Under the pieces are notes generated by a model that was not told the origin of the DNA, ran no database searches, and saw nothing but the letters and a program-made list of their open reading frames with translations. A program made the position numbers and the translations under genes. DNA of 30,905 nucleotides from Methylococcaceae bacterium (GTDB taxonomy: Bacteria > Pseudomonadota > Gammaproteobacteria > Methylococcales > Methylomonadaceae): assembly GCA_947505055.1 (NCBI GenBank), contig CANNLO010000015.1:1-30905 (forward strand). Direction: 5' to 3'. This document shows, piece by piece, positions 2,014-30,905 of the stretch (positions are counted from its first letter, which is position 1; each line of letters opens with the position of its first letter).

Positions 2014-2014
2014 C

Positions 2015-16431: not shown

Positions 16432-17087
16432 TTTGATTTTTCCAACGCCTCAAGTAATTTTAAGGGCTCTGCAAATAAATTTGCCATCAACTTAAGCTCG
16501 CTGTCGCTTTTTCTCCACCATTCAGTTGAAATTAGACGGGTAACAATTTCTTCCGCAAAACGGAATCTGATATTATTACAAGGATTACCTGCCGCAATCG
16601 CATAAGGTGGGATATCTTTAGTTACTATTGATCCCGCTCCAATAACTGCACCCACACCAATAGTTACTCCAGCCTTAATCATCACGCCTTGTCCAATCCA
16701 AACATCAGCACCTATTATCGTTCTCGGAAGCGTTTCAGCATAAATACGACTGTTAACTAAGAATTTAGGCAAAGGCTGTGAGGTATCATAAAAAACAGGA
16801 CTGGTACTTACCATGTGCATGGGATGGTTTGCTAAGCCTATACTCACATTACTGGCAATTGAACAAAACTTACCTATTTCAGTATTGCAAACAAGGCTAC
16901 CTGATTGAATATAGCTATAAGCACCTAAGTTTGAATTAATTAAAGCAGCATCTCGGAACAACACAGAGTATTCACCTAATGTAGAAGATTCATCTACAGA
17001 TGCACCCACATAAATTACGCAAGTGGGGAATTTTATGCGCAGTATGATGCCACGGATATATGACTTAAGCCAATTTACAGGATTCAA
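16425..17087 (-). CDS. CatB-like hexapeptide acyltransferase, TTG start
   Basis: 220-residue left-handed beta-helix protein of the CatB/xenobiotic acyltransferase group. The repeats run from about residue 30 (STLGEYSVLF) through IGKFCSIASNVSIGLANHPM, where the histidine of the ANHPM stretch is the likely catalytic base. They continue to IGADVWIGQGVMIKAGVTIG and the closing PPYAIAAGNP. The start is TTG at 17087, overlapping the preceding stop as TTGA, with a clear GGAG 7 bases upstream; no suitable ATG exists. It probably O- or N-acylates a sugar of the repeat unit. A second acyltransferase follows at once, so two different positions or acyl groups are likely. Confidence 0.83.
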   Translation of the reverse strand: MNPVNWLKSYIRGIILRIKFPTCVIYVGASVDESSTLGEYSVLFRDAALINSNLGAYSYIQSGSLVCNTEIGKFCSIASNVSIGLANHPMHMVSTSPVFYDTSQPLPKFLVNSRIYAETLPRTIIGADVWIGQGVMIKAGVTIGVGAVIGAGSIVTKDIPPYAIAAGNPCNNIRFRFAEEIVTRLISTEWWRKSDSELKLMANLFAEPLKLLEALEKSKC

Positions 17088-18913
17088 TGTAGCACTCCAA
17101 TATTATGCTTACCTAAGAGACCGTAAATAAAATCCAAATTCCTCTCAAGATTTTTTCCGTCAAGTGGTCCGATATACTTTTCCATCACCGATTTATCAAG
17201 AAATGCATCAAAGCGTGGGCTAGTTTGCTTAAAATCTAAAAAAGCCTGCTTGAGATCGTTAACTGACTCTACCGTAACTAACTCTGATTTTGTATCAAAC
17301 GGAGGGTCAAGAAATTCTTTATCTTTTTTATAATAAATGACGGGGATTCCAAGGCATGAGGCCTCAAACAATGTTTGAGAATAAATCGAAATATATAAAT
17401 CTGTCTTCTGTAAAACTTCAGCCATTGGCACTGTTCGTAGCAACTCAACTTCTAGGTCATTAAAATACTCGGCTACAAATGATTTATATTGCTCAAGCAC
17501 GCCATTAGGCCTAACTTTTATAACAATTGAAAATGAATGACCCTCGCTCTTGAGTTCCCGAAATGCAGTCAACACATCGAACATAAAATCAAATTCAACT
17601 GCAACATGGCTTATAAGATCAAGAGGATTAAATCCGGATGTACCTATACTTACGGTTGGCTTTAATCTATTAATTTTTTTGGTATTATTTTTAAGACCAT
17701 TAATGTAGAGATCCATCCGAGGGTCGCCCAAGCAGACTACATTTTCAGCATTTTTATAATAGTTCTTCTTTGTTTCCAAACCATAGCTATTAATATGTGA
17801 GGCATATTTTGCTTCATCGATAATTGTTGATGCCATCAGCCCATTAATGACCAAATAACTCGGCACATCTTTTGACTTTAATACACAATCTACGATTGTT
17901 TGTATAAAACCAATATTAGCTATCATTATTTCCAAGTGAATTGGATGATTTTTAATATAAATAACTACACTATTTAGAACACGCAATGCTTCCGACACTC
18001 TTGTTGATATCTGATTTTCAATAACATTATATGCACCTGAGGTAACATCAGTGCCATCACTTAAAACAAGTCTAGCGCAGCGGTTTAATCTAAAATCATT
18101 AAGTAGCAACTCAGATTGCTTTTTAAATTTTTCTTTACGTCCACGTATAGGAATTAATCGCTGAACAAAGAACTTCTTCCAGCCTTTTTCAGTAACAAGT
18201 GATGCTGTAGCCACCCTAAGATTAGAGTCCTTTAATAGGCGTTCAACTATTTGTTTCGTGGGGTGGTAGATTTGTGCGTAAATCGTTTTTTGAATTGGGT
18301 TACTCTTAAAAAGGGTGTCAGTATAAAAACGGATGTTTGATAAAACAGATACCAAAATATTTCTTGCAATATCTTTAATAGACTTTCCATGAAGAGCATC
18401 GTACATATATTTATGAATGTCAAAAAAATAGACGACTTGCTGCGACGCTACTTTTTTATTTATTATTTCAAAGCGCAAGCCCATTTCTTTTAAGATGTCA
18501 CTTACAAAACTATTTTCTTCACCGATGAAAATCGTGTGATACTTAAACGCTTTTAATTGTTCTAGATTAGCTCGCAGTCGAACATAATGAAGATATTCAG
18601 ACCAAATTTCGATACGGAAAGCAAAACCAAACGGCACACCCTGCGCAGTAAAAATATCATTGCCTGTTTTATCGTAATGCCATTTTTTAAAGAACTCTGA
18701 AGCCAGAAAATTATTCTTCTGCATTTCGTCTGAGGAGCATAAATTATCTACATAAAAAGCATTCCCACCTAGCTTTTCAATTTCACACTTCAATCCAAAA
18801 TCAAAAGTTAGCACCAAATCTTTTGAACGGAAAAAAGCTTCAGCACAATGCGACCAATAATTTCTTGATTCTAAAATATAGATATTTCGATATTTTTTAC
18901 TTGTATTAATCAA
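17084..18913 (-). CDS. Uncharacterised GT-B-like surface polysaccharide transferase, candidate nonulosonate transferase
   Basis: 609-residue protein I cannot place in a named family. The first beta strand reads NIYILESRNYW. The C-terminal half looks like the nucleotide-binding domain of a GT-B transferase: TVSIGTSGFNPLD, a strand near IVIKVRPNG, and TDLYISIYSQTLFEASCLGI followed by PVIYYKKD. The latter resembles the donor-site segment of CDP-glycerol-type and KpsC/S-like transferases. No signal peptide or membrane helix is apparent. The start is a TTG at 18913 overlapping the preceding stop as TTGA. It is very AT-rich (15 of 60 G+C in bases 17641-17700). Its position right after the CMP-sugar genes makes it the best candidate for transferring the Leg-type sugar; this is inference. 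Confidence 0.6.
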   Translation of the reverse strand: MINTSKKYRNIYILESRNYWSHCAEAFFRSKDLVLTFDFGLKCEIEKLGGNAFYVDNLCSSDEMQKNNFLASEFFKKWHYDKTGNDIFTAQGVPFGFAFRIEIWSEYLHYVRLRANLEQLKAFKYHTIFIGEENSFVSDILKEMGLRFEIINKKVASQQVVYFFDIHKYMYDALHGKSIKDIARNILVSVLSNIRFYTDTLFKSNPIQKTIYAQIYHPTKQIVERLLKDSNLRVATASLVTEKGWKKFFVQRLIPIRGRKEKFKKQSELLLNDFRLNRCARLVLSDGTDVTSGAYNVIENQISTRVSEALRVLNSVVIYIKNHPIHLEIMIANIGFIQTIVDCVLKSKDVPSYLVINGLMASTIIDEAKYASHINSYGLETKKNYYKNAENVVCLGDPRMDLYINGLKNNTKKINRLKPTVSIGTSGFNPLDLISHVAVEFDFMFDVLTAFRELKSEGHSFSIVIKVRPNGVLEQYKSFVAEYFNDLEVELLRTVPMAEVLQKTDLYISIYSQTLFEASCLGIPVIYYKKDKEFLDPPFDTKSELVTVESVNDLKQAFLDFKQTSPRFDAFLDKSVMEKYIGPLDGKNLERNLDFIYGLLGKHNIGVLH

Positions 18914-19675: not shown

Positions 19676-21469
19676 TTACTTCTTCGAAAGCAAAATGCTG
19701 TCATTGATCAGTAGATGGTCGAGTCCAGACAGCTCAAAGGTGCGAATAGCATCAGCAATAGTGTCTACAATCGGCTCACCATGAAGGTTAAAACTTGTAT
19801 TAAGTAGCGCGGGAATTCCAGTGATTTTTTGAAATGCAGTTATTAATGCATGATATTCTGGAGTATATTTTCTTGATACGGCCTGTGGCCTTACTGTTTT
19901 ATCGTAAGGGTGAGTGCCTGCCTCAATTTGTGCATTCTTTTCGGGGCGAACATCCAAACTTATAGCCATAAACGGAGACTGGAGTTTTTTTGGATTGAAA
20001 ATATATTCATCTAATTTTTCTTCAAGAATAGACAACGCGAATGGCATCCAAAAGTCACGATTTTTAATTGCTTCATTGATTTGCTGTACTGTCTCACGTC
20101 GGCTTGGATTAGCTAAAATACTGCGATTACCGAGTGCCCTAGCGCCAAATTCTGCACGACCACGTATTACCGCTACGATATCGCCTTTTGCAAGCAATGA
20201 GGCGACCTGGTCAAAAGTGACATCAGCCTTTATATCAAACTTGTTTGAATAGCTATTTGCATCAAATTGATCAATCTCATCACGAATATCATAGCCCAAA
20301 TAAAGATTTGGAATAGGCTGATTACTTTTTGGATCAGAATTCAAAAGATAGCAGCCACCAATACTCAAACTTTCATCACCCGAAGATCCACAAACAAATA
20401 GCTCTTCGACCTCTTCCAGCTCAGAAATGGCCTTATTCATTTTTATGTTCATGGCAATACCACCACCAATTACAAAGCGCCGGATTCCAGTTTTCTTGGC
20501 AATACTCCGCACAAGGTCGCAAGCAATTTTTTCAGTATAAGTCTGAACCGCACCTGCAATATTATCAAATCGATGAGCTATCCAGCCATCTTTAAGATAG
20601 GCATAAAGATCCGTTGGGCGATTTTTTGAAACAATACGCATATCATCAATTTCACAAAGATCTTCAATAATTCGCATGGCATGATTTACATGCGATGCCT
20701 TTGCGTACGGAGCCAACCCCATAACCTTGAACTCGTGCTCATCTGGACGCATTGCAAGAATCAGAGTAGCCATCTTGTAGATTCTTCCTATGTCATTTTG
20801 ATTTGATTCAGCTAGCAGATCAAATTTTTCACCGTTTACTTTCCAAACTGTTTGATTGCGTCCATCTCCCCAGCCATCAAGTGTTAATACAATACAGTCT
20901 TTTCCGCGAAAGGGAGATCCAAAGTATGAATAGTAGGCATGGCAGGTGTGATGATCTAAAAACTCTATTTTATTAGCTTCAATACCTAACTGACTACTCA
21001 ATAAACGCACTTGTTCCTTACGAAATAGTTTTGCATCTTGGCTCAGATCAAGCATCACCTCGTCAGTTAGATATGAAAAGTCATAATACTGCTTATCCTC
21101 ATTAAATTTTTCGGCTGTGTTTAACCATTGCAGATAGTCAAGGCAGTTGAGGCCTTCCAGCCTTTTTCTATAATATTTCTCACCGTAATAATCGATATAA
21201 TCACTAATCGAAAATTGTGTGGATGTTTTTGCTTTTAAAAATACAGAACCTCCGTATGACATTGTTGTATAGGCAACTCTATTTAAGTCTTTACCACTTA
21301 CGCCTTCTTTTTGTAGGCAATATTCAATTGCTTGCCATGGATAGCCAACATAATTTTTCTTTTTAGTAAACCGCTCTTCCAATACTGCCGTTGTTATAGT
21401 TCCATCACGCATAATTGCAGCAGATGCATTATGTCCAGAATGCACAGCCAATATTAATTCTCGATTCAT
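19676..21469 (-). CDS. Carbamoyltransferase of the NodU/CmcH type
   Basis: 597 residues, full length for the family. The N-terminal Kae1-like domain starts ILAVHSGHNASAA and carries LDHHTCHAYYSYFGSPF with His173 and His177, then LTLDGWGDG. The C-terminal YrdC-like part shows FGARALGNRSILANPSR and NTSFNLHGEPIVDT, both family signatures. These enzymes transfer carbamoyl from carbamoyl phosphate via carbamoyl-AMP to a hydroxyl. It sits between legF and the ptmA-like gene, separated from legF by 74 bases, so a carbamoyl group on the Leg-type sugar or another sugar of the unit is expected. The target is not readable. No signal peptide, so it acts in the cytoplasm. Confidence 0.9.
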   Translation of the reverse strand: MNRELILAVHSGHNASAAIMRDGTITTAVLEERFTKKKNYVGYPWQAIEYCLQKEGVSGKDLNRVAYTTMSYGGSVFLKAKTSTQFSISDYIDYYGEKYYRKRLEGLNCLDYLQWLNTAEKFNEDKQYYDFSYLTDEVMLDLSQDAKLFRKEQVRLLSSQLGIEANKIEFLDHHTCHAYYSYFGSPFRGKDCIVLTLDGWGDGRNQTVWKVNGEKFDLLAESNQNDIGRIYKMATLILAMRPDEHEFKVMGLAPYAKASHVNHAMRIIEDLCEIDDMRIVSKNRPTDLYAYLKDGWIAHRFDNIAGAVQTYTEKIACDLVRSIAKKTGIRRFVIGGGIAMNIKMNKAISELEEVEELFVCGSSGDESLSIGGCYLLNSDPKSNQPIPNLYLGYDIRDEIDQFDANSYSNKFDIKADVTFDQVASLLAKGDIVAVIRGRAEFGARALGNRSILANPSRRETVQQINEAIKNRDFWMPFALSILEEKLDEYIFNPKKLQSPFMAISLDVRPEKNAQIEAGTHPYDKTVRPQAVSRKYTPEYHALITAFQKITGIPALLNTSFNLHGEPIVDTIADAIRTFELSGLDHLLINDSILLSKK

Positions 21470-21517: not shown

Positions 21518-21544
21518 AGCATAGCCAGCAACCAATACTATGCT
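21518..21544. repeat. Inverted repeat directly after legF
   Basis: Perfect 7-base arms AGCATAG (21518-21524) and CTATGCT (21538-21544) around a 13-base loop. On the transcript the hairpin begins at the last base of the legF stop codon. It marks the end of the tightly packed Leg operon and precedes the carbamoyltransferase by about 50 bases. No U-run follows, so it may be an mRNA processing or stability hairpin rather than an intrinsic terminator. Confidence 0.35.
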
Positions 21545-22245
21545 TACACAATATCTCTAGAAGTTAATAGACATTCAGCCATCTGAAAATCTATCAAAGT
21601 ATCAATATCAATTGCTCGCTCAGTTGGTATATGTACAGCTTTTACCCGACCTTCAAACGTCGCATTATAAGTCATCACAAACTCTGGGTTCGCAACATAG
21701 CAAACGGTTGCCATGTCATAAACTACAGGAGCATCTTGTCGACGAGCTATGGATAACTGTGGTGGATTAACCAATCCTACTGTGCCATCTTCATTGGTTT
21801 TAACCATATTAAAGTACGGACTACGATGCGCATCAGTTACTGTAATTATCATATCAGCATCGCCCTTCTCATACTCATCTAGGCAGTTTTCAATATCTAT
21901 CGGCAACCGTAAGGGAGCGGTAGTGGGAATCGACACCATTACCTCTGGCAATATCCCAGTTGTTTCACACAGGTAATTAAGCGCATGACGCCAAGCTAAC
22001 CATTCAGGGCTATCATCACGGGCAAGTTCTGCTGGCCGAATAAACGGCACTTCTGCGCCATGCTCAAGCGCGACCGCAGCAATCTCCTCCGAATCCGTTG
22101 AGACAATGACACGTTCAATACGCTTAACCGCAAACGCATGCTCAATAGACCAAGCGATTAAGGGCTTACCACCTAGCAGACGGATATTTTTGCCAGGCAA
22201 ACCTTTGGAACCACCACGTGCAAAGATGAAAGCAACAGTTTTCAT
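21544..22245 (-). CDS. legF: CMP-legionaminic acid-type synthetase (acylneuraminate cytidylyltransferase)
   Basis: Cytidylyltransferase of 233 residues that activates a nonulosonic acid with CTP. The start at the ATG 22245 (overlapping the previous stop as ATGA) gives MKTVAFIFARGGSKGLPGKN, the exact N-terminal CTP-binding signature of the NeuA/LegF/PseF family. The longer reading from 22284 only adds translated sequence of the neighbour. Further family marks are IVSTDSEEIAAVA, PTTAPLRLPIDIENC and ERAIDIDTLIDF. It is the last step of the sugar-activation operon. Legionaminic rather than neuraminic specificity is inferred from the ptmE-like and legB/legC genes in the same operon (homologue PtmB in Campylobacter). 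Confidence 0.87.
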   Translation of the reverse strand: MKTVAFIFARGGSKGLPGKNIRLLGGKPLIAWSIEHAFAVKRIERVIVSTDSEEIAAVALEHGAEVPFIRPAELARDDSPEWLAWRHALNYLCETTGILPEVMVSIPTTAPLRLPIDIENCLDEYEKGDADMIITVTDAHRSPYFNMVKTNEDGTVGLVNPPQLSIARRQDAPVVYDMATVCYVANPEFVMTYNATFEGRVKAVHIPTERAIDIDTLIDFQMAECLLTSRDIV

Positions 22246-23279
22246 AAGCCAAACGCCTCTACATCTAACATTCCTACTGCGCACATTTGTCCGCCAGATG
22301 CCGCTGAGTTACGCGCAGCATCAATAATTTGTAACACTTTCAAACCATCATCCCCAGTAATCAATGGTAGTTTGCGTTCTATCACGCACTCGATAAAATT
22401 TTTCCACTCGGCCATATAACTATCATCACGTTGATGCGGGAGTCTAAATAACTCTCGCCACTCTTTTGCACCTACTTCATACAGCGAAACCTCACCCGTC
22501 AATCCATTCCAACGTAGGCTACCTTTTTCACCAATCGCAGTACAAAGCCTCGTTGTGTCGTGGCGTATAAAATCTAGATTAACTATACATGTTAGCTGAC
22601 GTCCATCAGATGCCGGTGTAAAACCTAATGTGAGATGTGCAGTATCTTCAACATCAATCTCTAAGCTACTCTGCCGACTAAGCGAAGCTTTGACCCAATC
22701 AACTTCACCGAATATCCAGCCGAGGTAATCTAGTTCATGACTAAGTTCCAACAATGCGCCACCACCTAACTCCTGCCTTGCTGATACACCCTGACGATAA
22801 TCGCTCTCTGGTCGCCACGACGGCAAATACTGACCTATCTCACACCGCACCGATAAAACTTTACCAACAACATTCCCTCTTAATAAATCTCGGTAGCGCT
22901 GCAGTGATGGTAGAAATCGAAGGTTATAGCCTGTTAATATAACTACACCTTGCTTCTCACACGTTTCAAGCAACTGCATAACGCCACTCAGTGAGGCTGA
23001 TAAAGGTTTTTCTATAAGAAGATGTACACCAAACTCTGCCAATTCCTGTGCAGTAGCAACATGAAACGGAGCTGGGCTTGCAATAACAGCTATCTGCGGT
23101 GCAAACGCGAGAGCCTCTTCAATACTTGAAAAACTGCCATTTGCATACTCAGGCACTTCATTCGAAGCCTGATGGCGTAGAACTCTTATGTCAGCACTAG
23201 GCAACAACTCTCTAGCTAATCGTAAATGACGCTTACCTATACTACCAAGACCTACTATAAGAATGCGGTTAATTAACAT
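22242..23279 (-). CDS. Gfo/Idh/MocA-family oxidoreductase
   Basis: NAD(P)-dependent oxidoreductase of 345 residues. The N-terminal Rossmann domain reads ILIVGLGSIGKRHLR, EKPLS is the conserved lysine-proline segment of the family, and the C-terminal beta-sheet domain includes LGGGALLELSHELDYLGWIFG. The ATG at 23279 is preferred: it follows the upstream stop by one base, has GGTGG upstream, and gives the usual short N-terminus. An ATG four codons earlier (23291) overlaps the previous gene. Such genes recur beside ptmE- and legF-like genes in nonulosonic acid clusters, but the reaction is not established. It could redox-modify the nucleotide sugar or set a stereocentre. Confidence 0.82.
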   Translation of the reverse strand: MLINRILIVGLGSIGKRHLRLARELLPSADIRVLRHQASNEVPEYANGSFSSIEEALAFAPQIAVIASPAPFHVATAQELAEFGVHLLIEKPLSASLSGVMQLLETCEKQGVVILTGYNLRFLPSLQRYRDLLRGNVVGKVLSVRCEIGQYLPSWRPESDYRQGVSARQELGGGALLELSHELDYLGWIFGEVDWVKASLSRQSSLEIDVEDTAHLTLGFTPASDGRQLTCIVNLDFIRHDTTRLCTAIGEKGSLRWNGLTGEVSLYEVGAKEWRELFRLPHQRDDSYMAEWKNFIECVIERKLPLITGDDGLKVLQIIDAARNSAASGGQMCAVGMLDVEAFGL

Positions 23280-23280
23280 T

Positions 23281-24357
23281 TCAACCACCATGGAGTTTCA
23301 TCGCTTGCTTTTGCTCCTGATTGTTCGCCAACTGCAAATCTGCTGGCCGACCTACATCCAACCATGGCTCATGCATCGGATAAGCAACCGTGCGTTTTTT
23401 CTTGGTCTGCAAGCGCTCAAACAAGGCGGGCATGTCACAGTGTGCATCGGCAGTTAAAACACTCAGTGCTGATGGGTCGAGCACATAAACACCAGCGTTA
23501 ATATGACTGCGAGCAATAGGCTTTTCTTCAAAACCAACAATTTCAACGCCTTGAGTTTGTACTACACCAAAGGGGTGTTGCCATTCATGTACGCGAACCG
23601 CCATAGTGGCAGTGGCAGCATGGCGAGTATGAAAATCTAACAGCTCCCCATAGCGTATATCGGTAATCACATCTCCATTAGTCACCACAAACGGCGCATC
23701 TGGCAAAGGGCTTAGCAAGCCAAGCGCACCGGCAGTCCCCAATGGTGATTTTTCGCGGGAGTAATCTATCTGCACACCTAAACGCTCACCATTGCCAAAA
23801 TACTCCTCAATCATGTGTCCTAGGTAATGGATGGCAAGCACGAAATGATTAAAGCCCTCCAACTTGGCGCGTTCAATAATGTGCTCTAACATAGGTTTGC
23901 CAGCAACAGGCAATAAAGGTTTTGGGCAATTTTCTGTATGAGGAAGTAGCCTTGTACCCATACCACCAGCCATAATAACCATCAAGTTGGGACGTGTAGG
24001 TGGTGTAGTGATTTCATCCCACAAATGCAAACCAACAATATGATGCTGCTCATCGACCACAGGAATTTGCTGAATCTTATTGGCTACCATTAACTGCATC
24101 ACCAAATCACGTCCCATCTCAGGTGGCACTACCAAGGCATTACGATGAATTATGCTAGTTAAGGGACTACTAAGATCAAGTTCTTTGAGTAAACCACGTC
24201 TGATATCGCCATCAGATACGGTTCCTTCTAACACGCCGGTTTCATTGGCTACCAAAACAATTTTGATGGAAACTTGGTCAAGGTTACGAATAGCTTGACC
24301 AATGGTGGAATTGGCGGGCAATATTGCTTGACGCCAAATTTGTTCAGATGGCTTCAT
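23281..24357 (-). CDS. ptmE: CBS-domain sugar nucleotidyltransferase (PtmE-like)
   Basis: 358 residues in two parts. Residues 1-120 form a pair of CBS domains (GTVSDGDIRRGLL and IQQIPVVDEQHHIVGLH). From about 125 on is a nucleotidyltransferase with VIMAGGMGTRLLPHTENCPK and the metal/substrate segment VVTNGDVITDI. This fusion is the architecture of PtmE of Campylobacter, the guanylyltransferase that makes the GDP-linked glucosamine precursor of legionaminic acid. Its presence is the strongest sign that the pathway is the GDP-sugar Leg route rather than sialic or pseudaminic acid. It starts 2 bases after the deacetylase stop. The CBS pair suggests adenine-nucleotide control. GDP specificity is inferred. 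Confidence 0.82.
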   Translation of the reverse strand: MKPSEQIWRQAILPANSTIGQAIRNLDQVSIKIVLVANETGVLEGTVSDGDIRRGLLKELDLSSPLTSIIHRNALVVPPEMGRDLVMQLMVANKIQQIPVVDEQHHIVGLHLWDEITTPPTRPNLMVIMAGGMGTRLLPHTENCPKPLLPVAGKPMLEHIIERAKLEGFNHFVLAIHYLGHMIEEYFGNGERLGVQIDYSREKSPLGTAGALGLLSPLPDAPFVVTNGDVITDIRYGELLDFHTRHAATATMAVRVHEWQHPFGVVQTQGVEIVGFEEKPIARSHINAGVYVLDPSALSVLTADAHCDMPALFERLQTKKKRTVAYPMHEPWLDVGRPADLQLANNQEQKQAMKLHGG

Positions 24358-24359
24358 TT

Positions 24360-25028
24360 TTATGATATTTCCCGTAACAATTCAAAGGCCTCTGCAGACT
24401 TGAACCCTGATGCAGCTCCGCGTAAGGTGGCCAATGCCCTAATCGATTCATGACTGCGCGGAAACGGGAACTTGCCTAGCTCTGATGCATAAATGTCTAT
24501 AGCTCGCAATTTATCAGCGAGGTGCGATTCTATATTAATAAACACATTCGGCCGAAAGGCTTGACTTGTTCCCAACCCAAAATCCGTTTCTGAAAGGGTT
24601 TCGTAAGCAAGTACACGCCTTACTGATGGGTAGCGAAACCATTTTGTACAACTTGCCACTGCATCAAACACCACCTTGTGATCTGTATGAACGTCTGATG
24701 GGTGAGGCACAAATACCTCTTCTGGCTCAAAGGTTTTAAAAACATTTGAAATTGAAGCTACTAAATCACTCATTGGCACTTGGTCAAGTTGCGTTGTTGG
24801 AAAATTCAGCTCAAAGACTGAATCAAAACCAAACAATGCAGTGACGCGCTTAATTTCGTCAGCACGTTGCTCGATTTTCTCTTTACTCCAACCTGCTTCA
24901 GAGGTAATTCCAGTCACAATCAACCAAGCCACTTTATGACCTTCGGCCTTTAGACGGAGCAGAGTGCCCCCAACACCTAGCACTTCGTCGTCAGGGTGGG
25001 GAGCAACACACAATATAGTTTTACACAT
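24360..25028 (-). CDS. PIG-L/LmbE-family deacetylase
   Basis: 222 residues from the ATG at 25028, giving MCKTILCVAPHPDDEVLG; the reading from 25049 overlaps legG by more. The metal site is complete: AHPDDE-type motif with His11, Asp13 and Asp14, and the second motif HTDH (His114, His117). Family members remove N-acetyl from GlcNAc-type substrates (for example BshB, PIG-L). It overlaps legG by 8 bases and is followed by ptmE after 2, so it belongs to the Leg operon. A likely role is removing an acetyl from a pathway sugar so that another acyl group, perhaps from the GNAT-like protein, can be added. This is inference. Confidence 0.85.
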   Translation of the reverse strand: MCKTILCVAPHPDDEVLGVGGTLLRLKAEGHKVAWLIVTGITSEAGWSKEKIEQRADEIKRVTALFGFDSVFELNFPTTQLDQVPMSDLVASISNVFKTFEPEEVFVPHPSDVHTDHKVVFDAVASCTKWFRYPSVRRVLAYETLSETDFGLGTSQAFRPNVFINIESHLADKLRAIDIYASELGKFPFPRSHESIRALATLRGAASGFKSAEAFELLREIS

Positions 25029-26205
25029 TATAGACTTCTCTATTTTCATTTAACGGATCTTCTGGTTTTTTAGCTAGCTTAGAGAAATCCGTGTTCTTCA
25101 GCAGTTGCGCTGCCATAACGGAACTATTACCGTCACCGTATGGATTTACAATTCTTTGAAGGTTAGCTTGGAAGTCATCACTTAAAGCAGCTTGTATTGC
25201 ATTAATAATGTTCTCATAAGTTCCATCTGTAAAAATTACATTCGATCCGCTAAGCCTTCCACGTTGACGCGCGCCAACATTTATAGCGGGCAACTTCAAT
25301 GATGCGGCCTCTAGCAATCCAGCAGATGAATTACCAACAATCATTTTAGAAGATCGCAAAAGATTAACGAACTCACAGCGCGGGAGGTTCTGATAAAATG
25401 TTACTTCGTTTTTTAGTGATAGCTGCTCTATAACCTTATGTATCTTAAAATTTCCTGGGTCAGTGTTTGCTCCACCCATGCACACATGGAAACCCTTATC
25501 TATAAGTGCTAGCACTGAATTTCTAATAAACTCACCGCCCACCTCTACTTCTTCAGCAATAGGGTGAAAAATGAAAGTAGCCAACGGGTTTATATGGGCG
25601 TGCTCATTTGCTCCCATTTTTTCCAGAACGCTCAACATATCTATTACAGGCTCTTGAATAAACTTGTCAAGGGCAACACTTCCAATCAAAAAAATTCTTG
25701 CTTCTGGCTCCCCTAAACTGATTAACCTGTTTTTATGTTCTATTGTACTAACAAAATGGGCAGATGAAAGCTTGCTCGTAGCGTGTCTTAGAGGGTTATC
25801 TATATGTCCATCAGTGGCATGATCACCTCCAAAGAAATGTACCGTCGGTATACCTAGAAATAAACCAAGCATTCCACCAATCAGAACATCTTCACGGTCC
25901 CCCGCATATATAATGACATCCGGTGCAAAGTTCTTAACTATATCTATACTACCTGAAAGCAATACGGATGCCGTCTTAAGTCTTGATGAAAGGCTATCAG
26001 CGCTTATTAATGTTTCTAGCTCTACTAATATTTTTAATCCATCATCATGTATGCTTGATACGGAATATCCATAGGCAGGTGAAAGATGGGCGCCTGAAAC
26101 TAGTAACTGTAGATCCACATCTGGATCAGATTGTAGCAACCTATAAAGGTTGCTCATTAAATCATATTCAGATCGAATGGAACTTATTGCTAAAATTTTA
26201 AGCAT
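25021..26205 (-). CDS. legG: NDP-sugar 2-epimerase, hydrolysing (LegG/NeuC family)
   Basis: GT-B-fold epimerase of 394 residues that inverts C2 and releases the nucleotide, yielding the 6-deoxy-mannosamine-type precursor for nonulosonate synthesis. Visible family marks: ISSIRSEYDLMSNL at the N-terminus, YAGDREDVLIGGM, FFGGDHATDGHIDNPLRHAT, and the C-terminal VGNSSAGLLEAASLKLPAINVG. The HATSKLSSAHF segment parallels the RHAITKLSH segment of NeuC. A substrate of GDP-2,4-diacetamido-2,4,6-trideoxyglucose type is inferred from ptmE, legB and legC in the same operon. It is 2 bases after the GNAT-like gene and overlaps the deacetylase by 8. Confidence 0.88.
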   Translation of the reverse strand: MLKILAISSIRSEYDLMSNLYRLLQSDPDVDLQLLVSGAHLSPAYGYSVSSIHDDGLKILVELETLISADSLSSRLKTASVLLSGSIDIVKNFAPDVIIYAGDREDVLIGGMLGLFLGIPTVHFFGGDHATDGHIDNPLRHATSKLSSAHFVSTIEHKNRLISLGEPEARIFLIGSVALDKFIQEPVIDMLSVLEKMGANEHAHINPLATFIFHPIAEEVEVGGEFIRNSVLALIDKGFHVCMGGANTDPGNFKIHKVIEQLSLKNEVTFYQNLPRCEFVNLLRSSKMIVGNSSAGLLEAASLKLPAINVGARQRGRLSGSNVIFTDGTYENIINAIQAALSDDFQANLQRIVNPYGDGNSSVMAAQLLKNTDFSKLAKKPEDPLNENREVYNV

Positions 26206-26207
26206 AT

Positions 26208-27008
26208 CTAAAACACATCAGATAGGCACATTTGCCTATTAATAATAGATGGTACGAATTCTTTGTTTATCCGAACTCCACCAAATTGATATTCGAATAT
26301 CATGGAATCTCGTAATTGCGTGTTTTCATTTCTAATTAAGATATTAATATATTTACCATCAGGTATTTTTTTTAAATCATCCTCTTTCTCGAAATACATT
26401 ACATCTATGGCATCATCGAATTCTTTGTAAAGTAGCCCATCATTCCAAAAATATTTAGCCCCAGGTCTCGACATTCTCCACATGAGAGTTTTCTGATCTT
26501 GAAAATTCAATGTATATGCCTTTTCTGACAATAACATTGAAATTGTGCTTCCCTCAAATAATTGTTCTTTGGTGATTCTGGCGACATAGTCAGTGGGCGG
26601 AAGCACCCAATTTAATCTTTTCTTAAATCCAGGAGTTGACAATGCATTAGGGAATCCCATTATAAAATCGACACCGAGTTTAGCTGCAACTTCATAAGTA
26701 TCCCCCGCCAATTTTTGGAATAATCCATATTTTCGGTGACTCTCAGCAACCATGGTCGTCATAGACAGGTATGAATTAATCACCCCAGCACCAGACCAAA
26801 GTGGCATAGACATGATTGCATAATGCCCAACCAAACGATTCTCTTCGTAGCAAAGTGTAACAATAGGCTCATTGTTTGGATTTTTAATGTATGCCCAATC
26901 CCACAAGTCTCCAATCTCTCTCTCAGCAAAACACTCTCTAAAAAGCCCATTAATCTTAACTTTATGCTTCAAAAGTTCTTGCTTATCACATATAGATATT
27001 ATTTCCAT
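26208..27008 (-). CDS. GNAT-like acyl-CoA N-acyltransferase
   Basis: 266-residue protein with an acyl-CoA N-acyltransferase look. LVGHYAIMSMPLWSGAGVINSYLSMTTMVAESHRKYGLFQKLAGD covers beta strands 2-4 and the CoA pyrophosphate-binding turn (positions around 70-105). GVDFIMGFPNALSTPGFKKRLNW is the start of the second half. The C-terminal ~110 residues are less typical. The start is the ATG at 27008 without a clear ribosome site; an in-frame TTG lies one codon earlier. In this operon it could add an acyl group at N5 or N7 of the Leg-type sugar, or replace one removed by the PIG-L protein. A family name beyond GNAT is not possible by eye. Confidence 0.7.
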   Translation of the reverse strand: MEIISICDKQELLKHKVKINGLFRECFAEREIGDLWDWAYIKNPNNEPIVTLCYEENRLVGHYAIMSMPLWSGAGVINSYLSMTTMVAESHRKYGLFQKLAGDTYEVAAKLGVDFIMGFPNALSTPGFKKRLNWVLPPTDYVARITKEQLFEGSTISMLLSEKAYTLNFQDQKTLMWRMSRPGAKYFWNDGLLYKEFDDAIDVMYFEKEDDLKKIPDGKYINILIRNENTQLRDSMIFEYQFGGVRINKEFVPSIINRQMCLSDVF

Positions 27009-27096
27009 CAAGAAATTAAACGAAATATTTCTATTTCATTCCTACTCTTATTAAAATAGCTACACACCGGAATTAATATCAATTTGACGATTTGAT

Positions 27097-27807
27097 TCAT
27101 CGCGCAATTCCTCCTACATACAATGTTGATCCTGTTATAACATCAGGCCCATCCATCAAATAGTTAATTGCAATTGCAACATCTTTACTAGTCACCTCGT
27201 TCTTATACGCCTGTTTAGTATGCATGTAATCTATTTGAGATTCCGTTAAATGCTCAGTCATTGCTGTCATTACAAGAGCAGGGGCAACACAATTCACCCT
27301 AATGCCAAACCTAGCCAACTCAATAGACATTGATTCACTAGCATGCTTAAGAGCAGCTTTAGTTGCTCCATAAACAATCTCACCAGGTATATTCAATTCT
27401 GCAGCAATACTTGTGACATTAATAATTAAAGGCTTTTCAGTTCTAGTCAATGATTTCAACAATAATTTAACTAAATATAATGGTGCAATACAGTTTAAAG
27501 AAAAAGCCTCAGAAGCTAGTTTAGGGTCTAATTTAAATACTGGTGATGTTGGCATAATTCCAGCACAATTCACTATTGTATTTATTTTCACTTTATTAAT
27601 CCCACTACCTTCAATTATTGTTTTTACAGATTCGAAGTCTAGAAGATCACAACATAAATGTGTATAATTTGGATTATTTAGAAAAAACTCTTGAGGCTTT
27701 CGATCTAGCCCATAGACATGGTGATCAGAATTGTCGGTGAACAGTTGCTCACATAGTGCTAAACCTATACCTGATGACGCACCTGTAATTAGAGTAACTT
27801 TTGACAT
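27097..27807 (-). CDS. Short-chain dehydrogenase/reductase in the Leg operon
   Basis: Classical SDR of 236 residues: LITGASSGIGLAL cofactor site, NCAG at the end of strand 4, INVTSIAAE catalytic serine region and YGATK for the YxxxK pair, ending TGSTLYVGG. The ATG at 27807 has a very strong ribosome site, AGGAGGG, 4 bases upstream. It lies between legI and the GNAT-like gene, with gaps of 111 and 85 bases, the loosest spacing in this part of the operon, so it may be an added module. It could reduce or oxidise a side-chain carbon of the nonulosonic acid or its acyl group. No specific substrate can be named. Confidence 0.82.
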   Translation of the reverse strand: MSKVTLITGASSGIGLALCEQLFTDNSDHHVYGLDRKPQEFFLNNPNYTHLCCDLLDFESVKTIIEGSGINKVKINTIVNCAGIMPTSPVFKLDPKLASEAFSLNCIAPLYLVKLLLKSLTRTEKPLIINVTSIAAELNIPGEIVYGATKAALKHASESMSIELARFGIRVNCVAPALVMTAMTEHLTESQIDYMHTKQAYKNEVTSKDVAIAINYLMDGPDVITGSTLYVGGIAR

Positions 27808-27811
27808 TTTT

Positions 27812-27818
27812 CCCTCCT
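27812..27818 (-). promoter_or_regulatory. Strong Shine-Dalgarno site of the SDR gene
   Basis: AGGAGGG on the minus strand, 4 bases before the ATG at 27807. It is the best ribosome site I saw in the window and confirms this start. The rest of the 111-base gap to legI holds no clear promoter. Confidence 0.7.
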
Positions 27819-27918
27819 AATAGTTTGTAGCATGCGCTCATAATTGCCTTTAATATCTTGCATGACCTAACCTAGCAAGCCATATTCAACAAGGATGCCG
27901 TGATGATGCAACCTTTTC

Positions 27919-28923
27919 TCACAGCTCAATTAACTCATCTGCTAAAAAATTACGGGGTGCACTATAACCAATAACCTCATCCCATCGCATCGGGCTAATC
28001 CCATTGCCTGGACGCTTAACAGTAAGATTATTAGTAGAGTAAATCTCCCCTATTTTAATATCTCTTGAAGCTACAATGCTTTTTCTGGCAACTGTCATAT
28101 TCTTAGCTTCGCTGTTACTAGGCTTTTTAACACCATCACCCAGCGACTGCTGTATATGTCGAATTGCCTGCACCATAGCTTTGAGCTCATCAGGCTCTAA
28201 GCTTGCTTTATGATCCGGCCCCTCCATAGTGCGATCAAGCGTGAAGTGCTTTTCTATGACACATGCACCCATTGCAACTGCGGCTATGGGTACTTCTATC
28301 CCTTGTGTATGGTCAGAATATCCAACTTTTACTCCAAAGGCAGTGCTAATTGTATGCATAGCGCGTAAGTTAACATCGTCTATAGGGCAAGGGTATTCAG
28401 TTGTAGCATGTAACACGGAAATTTTTTCTTTTGATGTCCCCGCATTAATTAACACTTCCAAAGCGTCCTTAACCTCATCAAGATTAGCCATGCCTGTCGA
28501 AAGAATCACCTCTTTACCGAGACGGCCTATGTGTCGCAAATAAGGCAGATTGGTAATTTCACCACTGGGTATTTTAAATATTGCCATTTGAAATGAATTT
28601 AGCAAGTCTATGCTGTCATGATCAAACGGCGTCGATAAGAACATAATTTCCTTGTCTTTACAGTATCTAATCAAAACTCTATGTGCATTATCGTCGAGCT
28701 CTAGCTTCTTAATCATTTCATATTGCGTCTCATCAGTTGAAGTAGTCTGCTTCTGATAATCAGCTTTTTGTGCAAGCTTACTTACCAACTTGTCTGCTTT
28801 AAATGTTTGAAACTTAACGGCATCAGCACCCGCTTCGACTGCAACGTCAATCAGTTTTTTGGCTAACTCAATAGAACCATTATGATTAACGCCTGCTTCT
28901 GCAATAATAAAAACTTTACTCAT
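27919..28923 (-). CDS. legI: Legionaminic acid-type synthase (NeuB family)
   Basis: 334-residue synthase that condenses a 2,4-diacylamino-2,4,6-trideoxymannose-type sugar with phosphoenolpyruvate. From the ATG at 28923 it begins MSKVFIIAEAGVNHNG, the exact NeuB-family start; the upstream reading to 29043 only repeats neuD sequence in another frame. The TIM barrel carries AVKFQTFKADKLVS, GYSDHT and EKHFTLDR. The C-terminal SAF/antifreeze-like domain includes ARKSIVASRDIKIGE and VKRPGNGISP. The KADYQK segment fits LegI rather than PseI in my recollection. It overlaps neuD by 8 bases (ATGAGTAA). Confidence 0.9.
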   Translation of the reverse strand: MSKVFIIAEAGVNHNGSIELAKKLIDVAVEAGADAVKFQTFKADKLVSKLAQKADYQKQTTSTDETQYEMIKKLELDDNAHRVLIRYCKDKEIMFLSTPFDHDSIDLLNSFQMAIFKIPSGEITNLPYLRHIGRLGKEVILSTGMANLDEVKDALEVLINAGTSKEKISVLHATTEYPCPIDDVNLRAMHTISTAFGVKVGYSDHTQGIEVPIAAVAMGACVIEKHFTLDRTMEGPDHKASLEPDELKAMVQAIRHIQQSLGDGVKKPSNSEAKNMTVARKSIVASRDIKIGEIYSTNNLTVKRPGNGISPMRWDEVIGYSAPRNFLADELIEL

Positions 28924-29509
28924 TGGCGTAACCCCTAAATAGCGATCCCGCTTTAATGAAATCATTTTCTTTAGTATGAACTGATTCTTTGGTAACAGCG
29001 TTACTGCCCACAAAACTACCTTGCTTGACAATAACCCCACCATTAATAACGGCGCCTGTTGATATATGGCAATTATTTTCTATGACTACATCATGCTCAA
29101 TGAGTGACTTAGTATTGATGATGCAATTTTCACCCACTATGGTCTCTGCATTAATTAATGCATCATGCATGACGATTGTACCGTTGCCTATCTTGGCGTG
29201 CTTTGAAACATACGCCCTAGGTGAAATAATTACGGGTAACTTAAATCCTAGAAATTTAGCATAGTCAAATAGCCGAACACGAATTGCTGGGCTTTTTATT
29301 TGCCCGATAGTAATAAGCGCATAGTCATAACTTGCTTTTAGCTTTGTTAAATCGTCATCGTGACCGAGCCATGGATATCCCAACAAATCGCATATAGATC
29401 TATTAGTATCAACAATGCCAGCAATAAAGAATTTATTTTCTTGCTCAATAACATCAATACAAGATTTACAATGCCCGCCACCGCCGATTAAAATTAATTT
29501 TGGCTTCAT
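28916..29509 (-). CDS. legH: NeuD/LegH/PglD-type sugar N-acetyltransferase
   Basis: 197 residues: an N-terminal PglD-like nucleotide-binding region (LILIGGGGHCKSCIDVIE) followed by a left-handed beta-helix from about residue 95 (KHAKIGNGTIVMHDALINAE to QGSFVGSNAVTKES). The start ATG overlaps the legC stop by one base (TGATG), and the end overlaps legI by 8. Next to the aminotransferase it is expected to N-acetylate the 4-amino-4,6-dideoxy sugar made by LegC, the LegH step. The family is named NeuD in sialic acid loci, where the role differs; context decides for LegH. Confidence 0.83.
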   Translation of the reverse strand: MKPKLILIGGGGHCKSCIDVIEQENKFFIAGIVDTNRSICDLLGYPWLGHDDDLTKLKASYDYALITIGQIKSPAIRVRLFDYAKFLGFKLPVIISPRAYVSKHAKIGNGTIVMHDALINAETIVGENCIINTKSLIEHDVVIENNCHISTGAVINGGVIVKQGSFVGSNAVTKESVHTKENDFIKAGSLFRGYANE

Positions 29510-30657
29510 CAGAGTCTCGCACTGCTAGGTATATTCACAACACGCTCTTCAAGCCATTTTGCGTTTGTTAAATCTGCTGATTGGCAGTCGCTGAACATCA
29601 TTAATTCATTCATTAATCGCCATACTGGCCGTGACATAACGCCAGTGTCATTCAAATCCTTCAAAAAAATTTCGCGCGCTTGCTTGTCTACGAGCACCAA
29701 AGTATTGAGCCAATAATTTGAACTTGCTTGAGCCGGTTCTTTTACAAACATAAGATTACTATTAGAGAAAAATTCGGCATATGCATTTGCAATATCTCGC
29801 TTGCTTTCTAATAGTTTTGGCAAGCTCTCCATTTGCGCGCATCCAAGTGCTGCGTTGATGTTCGGTAGACGATAGTTATAACCAATTTCATCATGCACAA
29901 ATTCATACGGATGAGGCTGCTTAGCAGTGGTGGTAATATGCTTGGCACGCTTAGCCAGCGCTTCATCGTCTGTAATAATCATACCGCCACCGCCAGTAGT
30001 GATGGTCTTATTACCATTAAAGCTTAATGCTGCAAGCTTACCGAATGCGCCAGTGTGTTTACCTTGATAAAAACTTCCCAAACTCTCAGCAGCATCTTCA
30101 ATAAGCGGAATATTAAATTCATCGCATATCTTGGCAATTTCATCGATGCGGCAAGGATGGCCAAAGGTATGCATAGGTACAACTGCAGAAATCTTTTTAC
30201 CTGTTTTATTATTGATACACGCTAAAGTAGTTTTTGTCGCATTAGCTTCAAGAAATGTTCTTAAACTTACTGGGCTCATCCCTAACGTATCTAAATCAAC
30301 GTCAACAAAAACTGGTTTTGCTCCGCAATAACTAATCGCATTGCAGGTCGCGATAAATGAAAGTGGCTGCGTGATAACTTCATCGCCCTGGCTGACACCT
30401 ACCAACTTAAGCGCAATATGCAAAGCCGCTGTTCCATTGACAGTAGCAATAGCATACTTAACACCCGTATATTCTGCTACCAATTGCTCAAATCGATCAA
30501 CATACTTTCCGACGCTAGATACAAAAGTGGAATCGATACAGTCAATCAAATACGCCTTCTCATTGCCGGAAAATTTGGGCTCATGTAATGCAATAAAATC
30601 AGGCGTCTGATAAAGCTTGCGAATAAAATTAATCACTTCTTGGTAGTTATCACTCAT
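29509..30657 (-). CDS. legC: PLP-dependent NDP-4-keto-sugar aminotransferase (LegC)
   Basis: DegT/DnrJ/EryC1/StrS aminotransferase of 382 residues. PLP Lys217 lies in SFNGNKTITTGGGG and the pyridine-binding Asp188 in EDAAESLGSFYQGK. The N-terminal FIALHEPKFSGNEKAYL and STFVSSVGKYVDRFE are typical of the LegC group. It transfers an amino group from glutamate to C4 of the 4-keto sugar produced by LegB. The ATG start is 2 bases after the legB stop. Related enzymes (PglE, PseC, PerA) differ mainly in substrate; legB in front and legH/legI behind support LegC. Confidence 0.87.
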   Translation of the reverse strand: MSDNYQEVINFIRKLYQTPDFIALHEPKFSGNEKAYLIDCIDSTFVSSVGKYVDRFEQLVAEYTGVKYAIATVNGTAALHIALKLVGVSQGDEVITQPLSFIATCNAISYCGAKPVFVDVDLDTLGMSPVSLRTFLEANATKTTLACINNKTGKKISAVVPMHTFGHPCRIDEIAKICDEFNIPLIEDAAESLGSFYQGKHTGAFGKLAALSFNGNKTITTGGGGMIITDDEALAKRAKHITTTAKQPHPYEFVHDEIGYNYRLPNINAALGCAQMESLPKLLESKRDIANAYAEFFSNSNLMFVKEPAQASSNYWLNTLVLVDKQAREIFLKDLNDTGVMSRPVWRLMNELMMFSDCQSADLTNAKWLEERVVNIPSSARL

Positions 30658-30659
30658 AT

Positions 30660-30905
30660 CTACATCTTTCCATCAAGATACTTGCCAGTCTCTTTATGTC
30701 CAAAATCAGGAATCATTTTGTAGAAGAGCGTAACAATTTGTTCTTTGGTCCAACTTTTAGCAAGCTTCCTACCATCAATGCATTGAACGAATTCGTCTAG
30801 CAACTCATTATCAAACAGAGGCTTATTCTTTATTACTCCCATGTTATTAAATTTGGCCATATCAAGCGTTTCATTTTCTGTAAAAAATTCCTCAAAATCC
30901 TTTTC
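30660..30905 (-). CDS. legB: NDP-sugar 4,6-dehydratase LegB, C-terminal fragment
   Basis: The last 81 codons of a gene entering from the right edge. The frame is open from base 30905 through the ATG at 30860, so that ATG is internal (the preceding codons read EKDFEEFFTENETLD). The tail WTKEQIVTLFYKMIPDFGHK and ETGKYLDGKM matches, from memory, the conserved C-terminus of LegB-type NAD-dependent 4,6-dehydratases. The gene stops 2 bases before legC, the usual legB-legC order. It should start the pathway by making the 4-keto-6-deoxy sugar nucleotide. The catalytic part is outside the window. Confidence 0.75.
   Translation of the reverse strand, partial: EKDFEEFFTENETLDMAKFNNMGVIKNKPLFDNELLDEFVQCIDGRKLAKSWTKEQIVTLFYKMIPDFGHKETGKYLDGKM

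What the first reader, a model, noticed from the sequence alone, without database searches (positions are those of the whole stretch)
21544..30905. Leg-type nonulosonic acid operon with an apparent acyl-exchange pair (PIG-L deacetylase plus GNAT)
The core genes legB-C-H-I-G-F and a CBS-type ptmE homologue are all present. Packed among them are a complete PIG-L metal site (HPDDE and HTDH), a GNAT-like acyltransferase, an SDR and a Gfo/Idh/MocA oxidoreductase. Making diacetyl-legionaminic acid does not need these. They predict a modified nonulosonic acid, for example one where an N-acetyl is removed and another acyl added, or with altered stereochemistry.
Basis: partly seen in the sequence, partly recalled or inferred. 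Interest (0 to 1): 0.7.

Follow-up and report, generated by a model that had tools for sequence, protein, structure and literature searches.

The report
Acyl-swapping branch of legionaminic-acid sugar pathway
This bacterial gene cluster appears to build a sialic-acid-like surface sugar in which one standard acetyl group is cut off and replaced by a larger one, probably 3-hydroxybutyrate, by a deacetylase whose partner enzyme differs from one microbe to the next.

Summary
In detail: a GDP-type legionaminic acid (Leg) operon with an intact PIG-L deacetylase and a GNAT. The Gfo/Idh/MocA gene is PtmF, an ordinary Leg gene, and a second SDR just outside the finding is PtmA. PIG-L and GNAT are extra.

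In 100 loci fetched for PtmE, not for PIG-L, 92 were usable. All 17 with PIG-L also carry a second type of acyl-transfer enzyme (formyltransferase, GNAT, WbqC-like or ATP-grasp). Of 75 without PIG-L, 8 have such an enzyme, each time without LegH. LegG's family tree follows the partner type (bulky versus small: 2 changes in 60 rows); the other seven Leg-cluster genes do so far less or not. So the swap probably precedes LegG, at C2 of the GDP-sugar, which becomes N5 of Leg.

Window-type GNATs often sit beside a 3-hydroxyacyl-CoA dehydrogenase or a FabG-like SDR, or are fused to a MaoC domain (7 of 10 related loci). I therefore predict Leg5(3-hydroxybutyryl)7Ac. Product, substrate and position are inferred, not shown. 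I found no description of this branch in the listings of the open-access library searched.

The parts
30660..30905 (-). C-terminal fragment of LegB (4,6-dehydratase), cut by the window end
   Evidence: open frame that ends just before LegC; 65% identical over the fragment to a stretch before LegC at L025
29509..30657 (-). LegC aminotransferase
   Evidence: TIGR04181 565.8 bits over cutoff
28916..29509 (-). LegH/NeuD-type hexapeptide N-acetyltransferase (N7 acetyl, by pathway analogy)
   Evidence: TIGR03570 over cutoff, PglD_N and Hexapep
27919..28923 (-). LegI synthase (NeuB); start placed at the internal ATG
   Evidence: TIGR03569 over cutoff, SAF domain
27097..27807 (-). SDR-a, FabG-like; proposed 3-oxoacyl-CoA reductase that supplies the acyl donor
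   Evidence: PF00106 122.6 bits; best NCBIfam FabG 124.6, below cutoff 222; L161 has a FabG-like SDR and an AMP-binding ligase in its GNAT locus
26208..27008 (-). GNAT acyltransferase (proposed N-acyl donor step)
   Evidence: PF13527; model pLDDT 93.4; closest folds Eis and AAC(2')-Ia
25021..26205 (-). LegG hydrolysing 2-epimerase; bulky-acyl clade
   Evidence: TIGR03568 over cutoff; clade support 99.9
24360..25049 (-). PIG-L/LmbE N-deacetylase
   Evidence: PF02585; nearest solved: diacetylchitobiose deacetylase 8bgn
23281..24357 (-). PtmE-type CBS plus nucleotidyltransferase (GDP-sugar formation, by homology)
   Evidence: PF00571 and PF00483; 73-80% identical relatives in the genomes of L004, L006, L010 and L044, beside PIG-L
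22242..23291 (-). PtmF (Gfo/Idh/MocA oxidoreductase)
   Evidence: PF01408 and PF02894; conserved PtmE-PtmF-LegF-SDR order elsewhere
21544..22284 (-). LegF CMP-sugar synthetase (true start probably the ATG at 22245)
   Evidence: PF02348
18910..19704 (-). PtmA SDR (ordinary GDP-GlcNAc branch)
   Evidence: NF006619 344.2 bits over cutoff; NF050062 PtmA 265.4 below cutoff 350
19676..21469 (-). NodU-type carbamoyltransferase between LegF and PtmA; role uncertain
   Evidence: PF16861 and PF02543; no tblastn match in the 47 loci

Best explanation
The operon makes a legionaminic acid whose N5 acetyl has been exchanged. PtmA, PtmF and PtmE with housekeeping enzymes make GDP-GlcNAc (established pathway, by homology). 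LegB, LegC and LegH make GDP-2,4-diacetamido-2,4,6-trideoxyglucose (homology). PIG-L removes the C2 N-acetyl (inferred; about 0.75). SDR-a makes 3-hydroxybutyryl-CoA from acetoacetyl-CoA, and GNAT puts it on the free C2 amine (inferred; about 0.6 for 3-hydroxybutyryl, more for 'a larger acyl than acetyl or formyl'). LegG, of a clade found with bulky acyl types, then removes GDP and epimerises C2 (exchange before LegG: about 0.7). LegI and LegF finish CMP-Leg5(3-hydroxybutyryl)7Ac. The general form is that PIG-L is the constant first half of a module whose second half is swapped: formyltransferase, GNAT, WbqC-like protein or ATP-grasp ligase, and rarely a methyltransferase.
For: (a) Of 100 PtmE-centred loci from four groups, 92 had a usable LegI block. 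17 of 17 with PIG-L carry a non-LegH acyl enzyme, against 8 of 75 without (Fisher 7.7e-13); in those 8 it is the only acyl enzyme seen (6 formyltransferases, 2 ATP-grasp). (b) LegG tracks the partner class: 7 changes on 47 loci (least possible 5; shuffled mean 23.4), against PIG-L 20, LegI 17, PtmE 19 on the same loci. On larger sets, bulky versus small: LegG 2 in 60 rows (shuffled 20.2), PIG-L 22 (23.0), LegI 17 (19.7), PtmE 18 (19.5), LegC 17 (17.7), LegF 18 (17.3), LegH 12 (14.0), LegB 13 (14.7). The PIG-L data reject the same grouping (p-AU 1.0e-6). (c) Window-type GNAT: 7 of 10 related loci hold a 3-hydroxyacyl-CoA dehydrogenase (L034, L044, L092), a FabG-like SDR (L161) or a fused MaoC domain (L176-L178), against 0 of 59 loci of the other classes. 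(d) Natural N5 variants exist: 5-N-formyl-Leg in Halorubrum, with a possible formyltransferase gene next to LegG (passages), and Leg5GluNMe7Ac in C. botulinum flagellin (passage). (e) PIG-L's best solved match is diacetylchitobiose deacetylase, which from recall acts on a 2-acetamido sugar.
Against: No chemistry was measured. SDR-a and L161's SDR fall below the curated cutoffs for acetoacetyl-CoA reductase or FabG. Three window-type GNAT loci (L035, L174, L175) show no 3-hydroxyacyl-CoA gene nearby, and 5 of 75 loci without PIG-L match one of the same models. L179 has the GNAT but no PIG-L. With the six-class labels, LegC (21; lowest of 150 shuffles 22), LegH (17; 20) and LegB (18; 19) also show some class signal, and LegI does on 47 loci (17; lowest of 300 shuffles 19), so the order of steps is not proved. 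LegI, which would also meet the new acyl, does not follow bulky versus small (17 against 19.7). LegG does not separate formyl from acetyl (27 changes with seven labels). The Halorubrum abstract describes LegI as condensing the di-N-acetyl sugar, which leaves room for a later exchange. L004 and L010 have PIG-L with a methyltransferase next to LegG and no second acyl enzyme, and L137 an isolated PIG-L. The acyl-class models were built from PIG-L loci and the acyl-CoA models from GNAT loci, which favours finding them there.
Confidence: 0.62

Rival explanations
1. Acyl exchange is real but happens after LegG: PIG-L and GNAT act on the free 2,4-diacetamido mannose, on Leg or on CMP-Leg.
For: The Halorubrum paper's abstract describes LegI as condensing the di-N-acetyl sugar although the product is 5-N-formyl; LegI and LegF do not follow bulky versus small.
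Against: LegG, which would then never meet the new acyl, is the gene whose tree follows it most closely by far. Linkage alone does not explain this, as PIG-L is as close to the module as LegG is.
Confidence: 0.18
2. PIG-L and GNAT exchange an acyl group, but it is not 3-hydroxybutyryl (for example another hydroxyacyl or a branched acyl).
For: L161 adds an AMP-binding ligase (best NCBIfam match MenE, 102.9 bits, far below cutoff) whose acid is unknown; the SDR and MaoC families are broad.
Against: Three unrelated enzyme types all point to a 3-hydroxyacyl-CoA, and the L044 dehydrogenase fits 3-hydroxybutyryl-CoA dehydrogenase best (327.1 bits, below its cutoff of 408).
Confidence: 0.25
3. No exchange: PIG-L, GNAT and SDR-a modify another sugar of the same polysaccharide, or SDR-a alters the stereochemistry of the nonulosonic acid.
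For: The window is a large polysaccharide cluster with other sugar genes; SDR-a's substrate is unknown.
Against: PIG-L has LegG or LegI within two genes in 67 of 72 loci other than the window; a 3-hydroxyacyl-CoA dehydrogenase or a MaoC domain beside the same GNAT makes little sense for sugar stereochemistry.
Confidence: 0.08
4. The clustering is a passenger effect: acyl gene and LegG move as one cassette, so the LegG tree says nothing about substrate.
For: The acyl gene is directly upstream of LegG in many loci of the bulky classes.
Against: PIG-L is equally adjacent and does not track class; LegGs of three unrelated partner families (GNAT, WbqC, ATP-grasp) form one clade (support 99.9, after three GNAT exceptions were set aside); four of the eight most discriminating LegG positions (10, 105, 212, 244) lie within 3 residues of invariant R11, R104, H214, N247, the other four (15, 75, 279, 325) do not.
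Confidence: 0.15

Closest known systems
CMP-Leg5Ac7Ac pathway of the GDP type (Campylobacter, Plesiomonas)
   Same: LegC, LegH, LegG, LegI, LegF, PtmE, PtmF and PtmA homologues and the end of LegB; Plesiomonas gene list seen in passages
   Different: adds PIG-L, GNAT and SDR-a. That LegG belongs to another clade than the Plesiomonas one was not tested directly; with 75 LegGs from loci without PIG-L counted as small, bulky versus small needs 3 changes in 135 rows
5-N-formyl-legionaminic acid pathway of Halorubrum sp. PV6 (PMC6137143)
   Same: an acyl-transfer gene (HrrPV6_1050, 'possibly' the N-formyltransferase) beside LegG; N5 is not acetyl (passages)
   Different: formyltransferase rather than GNAT; the main text has no match for 'deacetyl' or HrrPV6_1052, the gene number just before LegI. 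A haloarchaeal relative, Halorussus, has formyltransferases-LegI-PIG-L-LegG
Leg5GluNMe7Ac flagellin glycan of Clostridium botulinum
   Same: N5 acetyl replaced by another acyl (passage in PMC5207245)
   Different: amino-acid acyl; its genes were not examined here; PMC2674064 writes the isomer Leg5Ac7NMeGlu (passage)
LmbE/PIG-L deacetylases (diacetylchitobiose deacetylase, BshB)
   Same: HPDDE site and sequence similarity; 2-acetamido-sugar chemistry is recalled
   Different: not a BshB1 by NCBIfam (63.6 bits against 182.5); paired with a replacement acyl enzyme
Eis and AAC(2')-Ia N-acetyltransferases

Membership tests
GDP-type legionaminic acid pathway | LegC, LegH, LegI, LegG and LegF homologues clustered | tested here: met
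   LegF is below the PseF cutoff in NCBIfam but meets PF02348
GDP-type legionaminic acid pathway | complete LegB | tested here: inconclusive
   only the C-terminal fragment lies in the window; no own genome is held
GDP-type legionaminic acid pathway | PtmE, PtmF and PtmA (GDP-GlcNAc branch) | tested here: met
   PtmE and PtmF by Pfam domains and gene order; PtmA by NF006619, but below the cutoff of NF050062
LmbE/PIG-L deacetylase | Pfam model over cutoff and intact metal site | tested here: met
   87.1 bits against 28.2; H18, D20, D21, H124 invariant in 35 rows
LmbE/PIG-L deacetylase | deacetylase activity | not testable with these tools
   needs an assay
BshB bacillithiol deacetylase | NCBIfam BshB1/BshB2 over cutoff | tested here: not met
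   63.6 against 182.5 and 32.0 against 195.25
GNAT acyltransferase | GNAT domain and fold | tested here: met
acetoacetyl-CoA reductase / FabG (SDR-a) | NCBIfam model over cutoff | tested here: not met
   124.6 against 222 for the best FabG model: called FabG-like only
5-N-formyl-Leg pathway | formyltransferase beside LegG | tested here: not met
   in the window a GNAT stands beside LegG

The most novel reading that the evidence does not exclude
A modular N5-acyl code of nonulosonic acids that I did not find described: a constant PIG-L strips the N-acetyl, an interchangeable enzyme (formyltransferase, GNAT with its own 3-hydroxyacyl-CoA supply, WbqC-like protein, ATP-grasp ligase, or a methyltransferase) installs the new group, and LegG is the checkpoint that has split into small-acyl and bulky-acyl lineages. 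It occurs in several bacterial phyla and in a haloarchaeon and would let the N5 group be predicted from the genome.
Probability: 0.62. Interest if true: 0.74.

Novelty: new variant of a known kind. Interest (0 to 1): 0.62.

Why it matters
N5-variant nonulosonic acids (N-formyl, N-methylglutamyl and others) have been found chemically, but in the passages I saw nobody says how the acetyl carried over from GlcNAc is removed. The module proposed here would answer that, turn genome sequence into a prediction of the acyl group on a surface sugar, name an enzyme (LegG) to read it from, and offer enzymes for making N5-modified sialic-acid-like sugars in vitro.

Tried and rejected
Rejected: PIG-L as a bacillithiol enzyme. 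Gfo/Idh/MocA as a novel modifier. Re-acetylation by the GNAT: it would be futile (inference), and LegG of this class is in the bulky clade. 'Any acyl partner means a swap': formyltransferases also occur without PIG-L, but in the 6 such loci without LegH, so they probably make N7-formyl.

Led nowhere: own genome of the window; a Halorubrum locus (no handle could be had; the last protein search, showed a 66% identical PIG-L in Halorubrum sp. LN27 and others in haloarchaea, without gene context); literature on WbqC and on deacetylation-reacylation; the 609-aa ORF without a Pfam match. The GNAT's profile match to solved structures by sequence is weak (AAC(2')-Ia, E 0.0032). A search with the GNAT in 399 genomes gave 4 matches, 2 of them weak and out of a Leg context (L180, L181). 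The first count cut PIG-L off at L085 by its trimming rule and is replaced.

Dropped before counts: 8 of 100 loci without a usable LegI; three same-genome duplicates (L075, L104, L115) and L137 before trees; rows outside set lengths or lacking the gene. GNAT loci L007, L009 and L043 were set aside after seeing the tree, for the clade test and the position comparison; they are in the counts. L004 and L010 were relabelled by hand as methyltransferase type, L028 and L029 as GNAT type from a GNAT fragment at the locus edge. The three duplicates are in the 17; without them it is 14 of 14.
Full report
What is there. The minus strand from 30905 down to 18910 reads LegB (C-terminal fragment), LegC, LegH, LegI, SDR-a, GNAT, LegG, PIG-L, PtmE, PtmF, LegF, carbamoyltransferase, PtmA. 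In 9 of 12 gene junctions from LegC to the ORF after PtmA the gap is 2 bp or less. The GNAT is just above its Pfam cutoff, and its model (mean pLDDT 93.4) is an Eis/AAC(2')-like GNAT that spans residues 1-265 against Eis 3-402. Three residues of its C-terminal S-D-x-F are invariant in 42 rows. From recall, Eis and N-myristoyltransferase use the C-terminal carboxylate as base, so this may be the active end.

What is ordinary. PtmF (Gfo/Idh/MocA) and PtmA (SDR) belong to the GDP-GlcNAc branch. PtmE-PtmF-LegF-SDR occurs in 25 of 82 PtmE-centred loci without PIG-L. Plesiomonas has GlmU, PtmA, LegF, PtmF, PtmE, LegH, LegI, LegG, LegC and LegB in one cluster, and its flagellins carry glycans of 316 and 358 Da, read by the authors as a legionaminic-acid-like sugar and its acetylated form; 'deacetylase', 'PIG-L' and 'LmbE' do not occur in the main text (passages and word counts). 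So two of the four 'extra' genes of the finding's argument change meaning: PtmF is ordinary, and SDR-a is probably an acyl-donor gene.

PIG-L nearly always brings a partner. A search for the window's PIG-L in one genome per species gave 47 loci, 46-83% identical, whose record titles name Proteobacteria, Firmicutes, Chlorobi, Cyanobacteria, Actinobacteria and others; 45 of 47 loci hold a LegG match. Over all 73 loci with a called PIG-L (window, these 47, 3 plasmid loci, 18 from the PtmE set and 4 from GNAT searches), a formyltransferase, GNAT, WbqC-like protein or ATP-grasp ligase lies within four genes in 69. Outside the window, in 66 of 72 the partner is next to PIG-L or within two genes of LegG. 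The four without: L010 has a methyltransferase instead, L028 and L029 have a GNAT at the locus edge, L137 has an isolated PIG-L. L004's formyltransferase is the one in LegH's place, so L004 and L010 form a methyltransferase type; L019's formyltransferase is also between LegC and LegI. Pfam names for one example of each class: Formyl_trans_N, PF13527, WbqC, ATP-grasp.

A less biased count. I searched with PtmE, not PIG-L: 22 of 274, 34 of 348, 78 of 249 and 16 of 247 genomes had it, and I fetched 100 places. In 92 with a usable LegI block, PIG-L is in 17, all with a non-LegH acyl enzyme; of 75 without PIG-L, 8 have one and none of these 8 has LegH (Fisher 7.7e-13). The pattern holds in each of the four groups (4, 7, 3 and 3 PIG-L loci). 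My reading is one acyl enzyme for N7 (LegH, or a formyltransferase in its place) and, only with PIG-L, a second one; in 6 of the 17 (L085, L104, L110, L131, L132 with one acyl enzyme seen; L161 with three) the count is not exactly two. Caveats: the class models were trained on PIG-L loci, related genomes are not independent, and 3 of the 17 share genomes with the training set (14 of 14 without them; duplicates listed).

LegG reads the new group. On 47 loci with all four genes, partner class changes 7 times on the LegG tree (least possible 5), 20 on PIG-L, 17 on LegI and 19 on PtmE; shuffled labels average 23.3-23.5. On larger sets, bulky types (GNAT, WbqC, ATP-grasp) against small types (formyl, methyl) change 2 times on LegG (60 rows; shuffled 20.2) and 22, 17, 18, 17, 18, 12 and 13 times on PIG-L, LegI, PtmE, LegC, LegF, LegH and LegB, close to their shuffled means of 23.0, 19.7, 19.5, 17.7, 17.3, 14.0 and 14.7. 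With the six-class labels LegC, LegH and LegB fall slightly below their lowest shuffle (21/22, 17/20, 18/19), so they carry a weak signal, which kinship alone could give. With 75 LegGs from loci without PIG-L counted as small, there are 3 changes in 135 rows. LegG does not separate formyl from acetyl: with all seven labels there are 27 changes. Three GNAT loci (L007, L009, L043), in which the GNAT lies between LegG and PIG-L, fall among the small LegGs. With these set aside, after the tree was seen, the bulky LegGs are one clade (support 99.9), and PIG-L data reject the same grouping (p-AU 1.0e-6). Trees are the quick method with a simple model. Four of the eight most discriminating LegG positions (10, 105, 212, 244) lie next to invariant R11, R104, H214 and N247; the other four do not. 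I infer that PIG-L meets the same N-acetyl substrate everywhere and that LegG meets the product of the exchange. C2 of the hexose becomes C5 of the nonulosonic acid, so the exchanged group is N5. N7, added de novo by LegH, needs no deacetylase.

What the GNAT adds. Window-type GNATs often have company that could make 3-hydroxyacyl-CoA: 3-hydroxyacyl-CoA dehydrogenases in L034, L044 and L092 (Pfam 3HCDH; L044 327.1 bits to 3-hydroxybutyryl-CoA dehydrogenase, under its cutoff of 408; the other two are more distant), a FabG-like SDR plus an AMP-binding ligase in L161, and a MaoC domain fused to the GNAT in L176, L177 and L178 (84.7-91.4 bits, cutoff 27). That is 7 of 10 related loci, against 0 of 59 loci of other classes and 5 of 75 loci without PIG-L; L179, with the GNAT and no PIG-L, has a FabG-like match too (the models were built from the GNAT loci; L178 shows no PIG-L, its contig carrying an opposite-strand ORF there that looks by eye like a transposase). 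L035, L174 and L175 show none. The window's SDR-a lies 85 bp upstream of the GNAT. It is FabG-like but below cutoff. So 3-hydroxybutyryl is my prediction, about 0.6. A natural N5-(3-hydroxybutyramido) nonulosonic acid is mentioned for Flexibacter maritimus in a review, which in the same passage also gives the 7-substituted form (passage).

Calibration by known products. Halorubrum sp. PV6 makes 5-N-formyl-Leg and has LegG (1049), a possible formyltransferase (1050), NeuD (1051) and LegI (1053); the main text has no match for 1052 or for 'deacetyl' (passages and counts). Halorussus caseinilyticus, another haloarchaeon, has two formyltransferase-family genes, LegI, PIG-L and LegG side by side, one formyltransferase on the other strand. 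C. botulinum flagellin carries Leg5GluNMe7Ac (passage; another paper writes Leg5Ac7NMeGlu); the ATP-grasp type with methyltransferases in Firmicutes would suit such an amino-acyl group, but I did not look at its genes.

Novelty. Full-text searches for PIG-L, LmbE, deacetylase, formyltransferase and 3-hydroxybutyryl with nonulosonic or legionaminic acid and for deacetylation-reacylation listed no paper whose title or abstract start describes this branch. The lists were capped in all but (for example 20 of 823), I saw passages of ten papers and no whole text, and most subscription journals are not held, so it may be in print elsewhere. A 2013 Acinetobacter paper explains acyl variation by the acyltransferases of the ordinary slot and already suggests that downstream enzymes differ because the acyl differs (passages), which agrees with the LegG result.

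Shown: gene content, motifs, association, tree contrast, fusion. Inferred: deacetylation site, timing, the acyl group, and the product.

Noticed in passing
window 19676-21469 (-): NodU-type carbamoyltransferase between LegF and PtmA, without a tblastn match in the 47 PIG-L loci; could O-carbamoylate a sugar of this glycan.
   Followed up: no
window 1237-3768 (-); L044 11770-14358: PP-loop/HisH/HisF-like trio; a similar trio stands inside the Leg cluster of L044 between PtmE and PtmF, and all or parts of it near Leg genes in L007, L012 and L018. Such trios are recalled as amidine makers, so an acetamidino sugar is possible.
   Followed up: partly
L004, L010: PIG-L with a methyltransferase-like ORF between LegI and LegG and no second acyl enzyme: possibly an N-methylated amine instead of an amide.
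   Followed up: partly
L003, L004, L141, L155, L159, L160; L026: A formyltransferase stands in LegH's place between LegC and LegI (in L026 between LegB and LegI), suggesting N7-formyl legionaminic acids; in L003 and L026 a second one sits beside PIG-L.
   Followed up: partly
L050 9048-11862 (Roseibium plasmid): Formyltransferase plus PIG-L plus DegT aminotransferase without Leg genes in the stretch shown, with a dehydratase and a sugar transferase nearby: the same swap may occur on bacillosamine-like sugars.
   Followed up: no
window 17084-18913 (-): 609-aa protein without a Pfam match directly after PtmA; a 58% identical relative lies after the PtmA-like SDR in L005.
   Followed up: no
window 5023-6501 (-): 492-aa ORF in AT-rich DNA (about 30% GC) without a Pfam match; candidate flippase or polymerase.
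   Followed up: no
L178 9247-11449: MaoC-GNAT fusion ORF ends next to an ORF on the other strand that looks by eye like a transposase.
   Followed up: no
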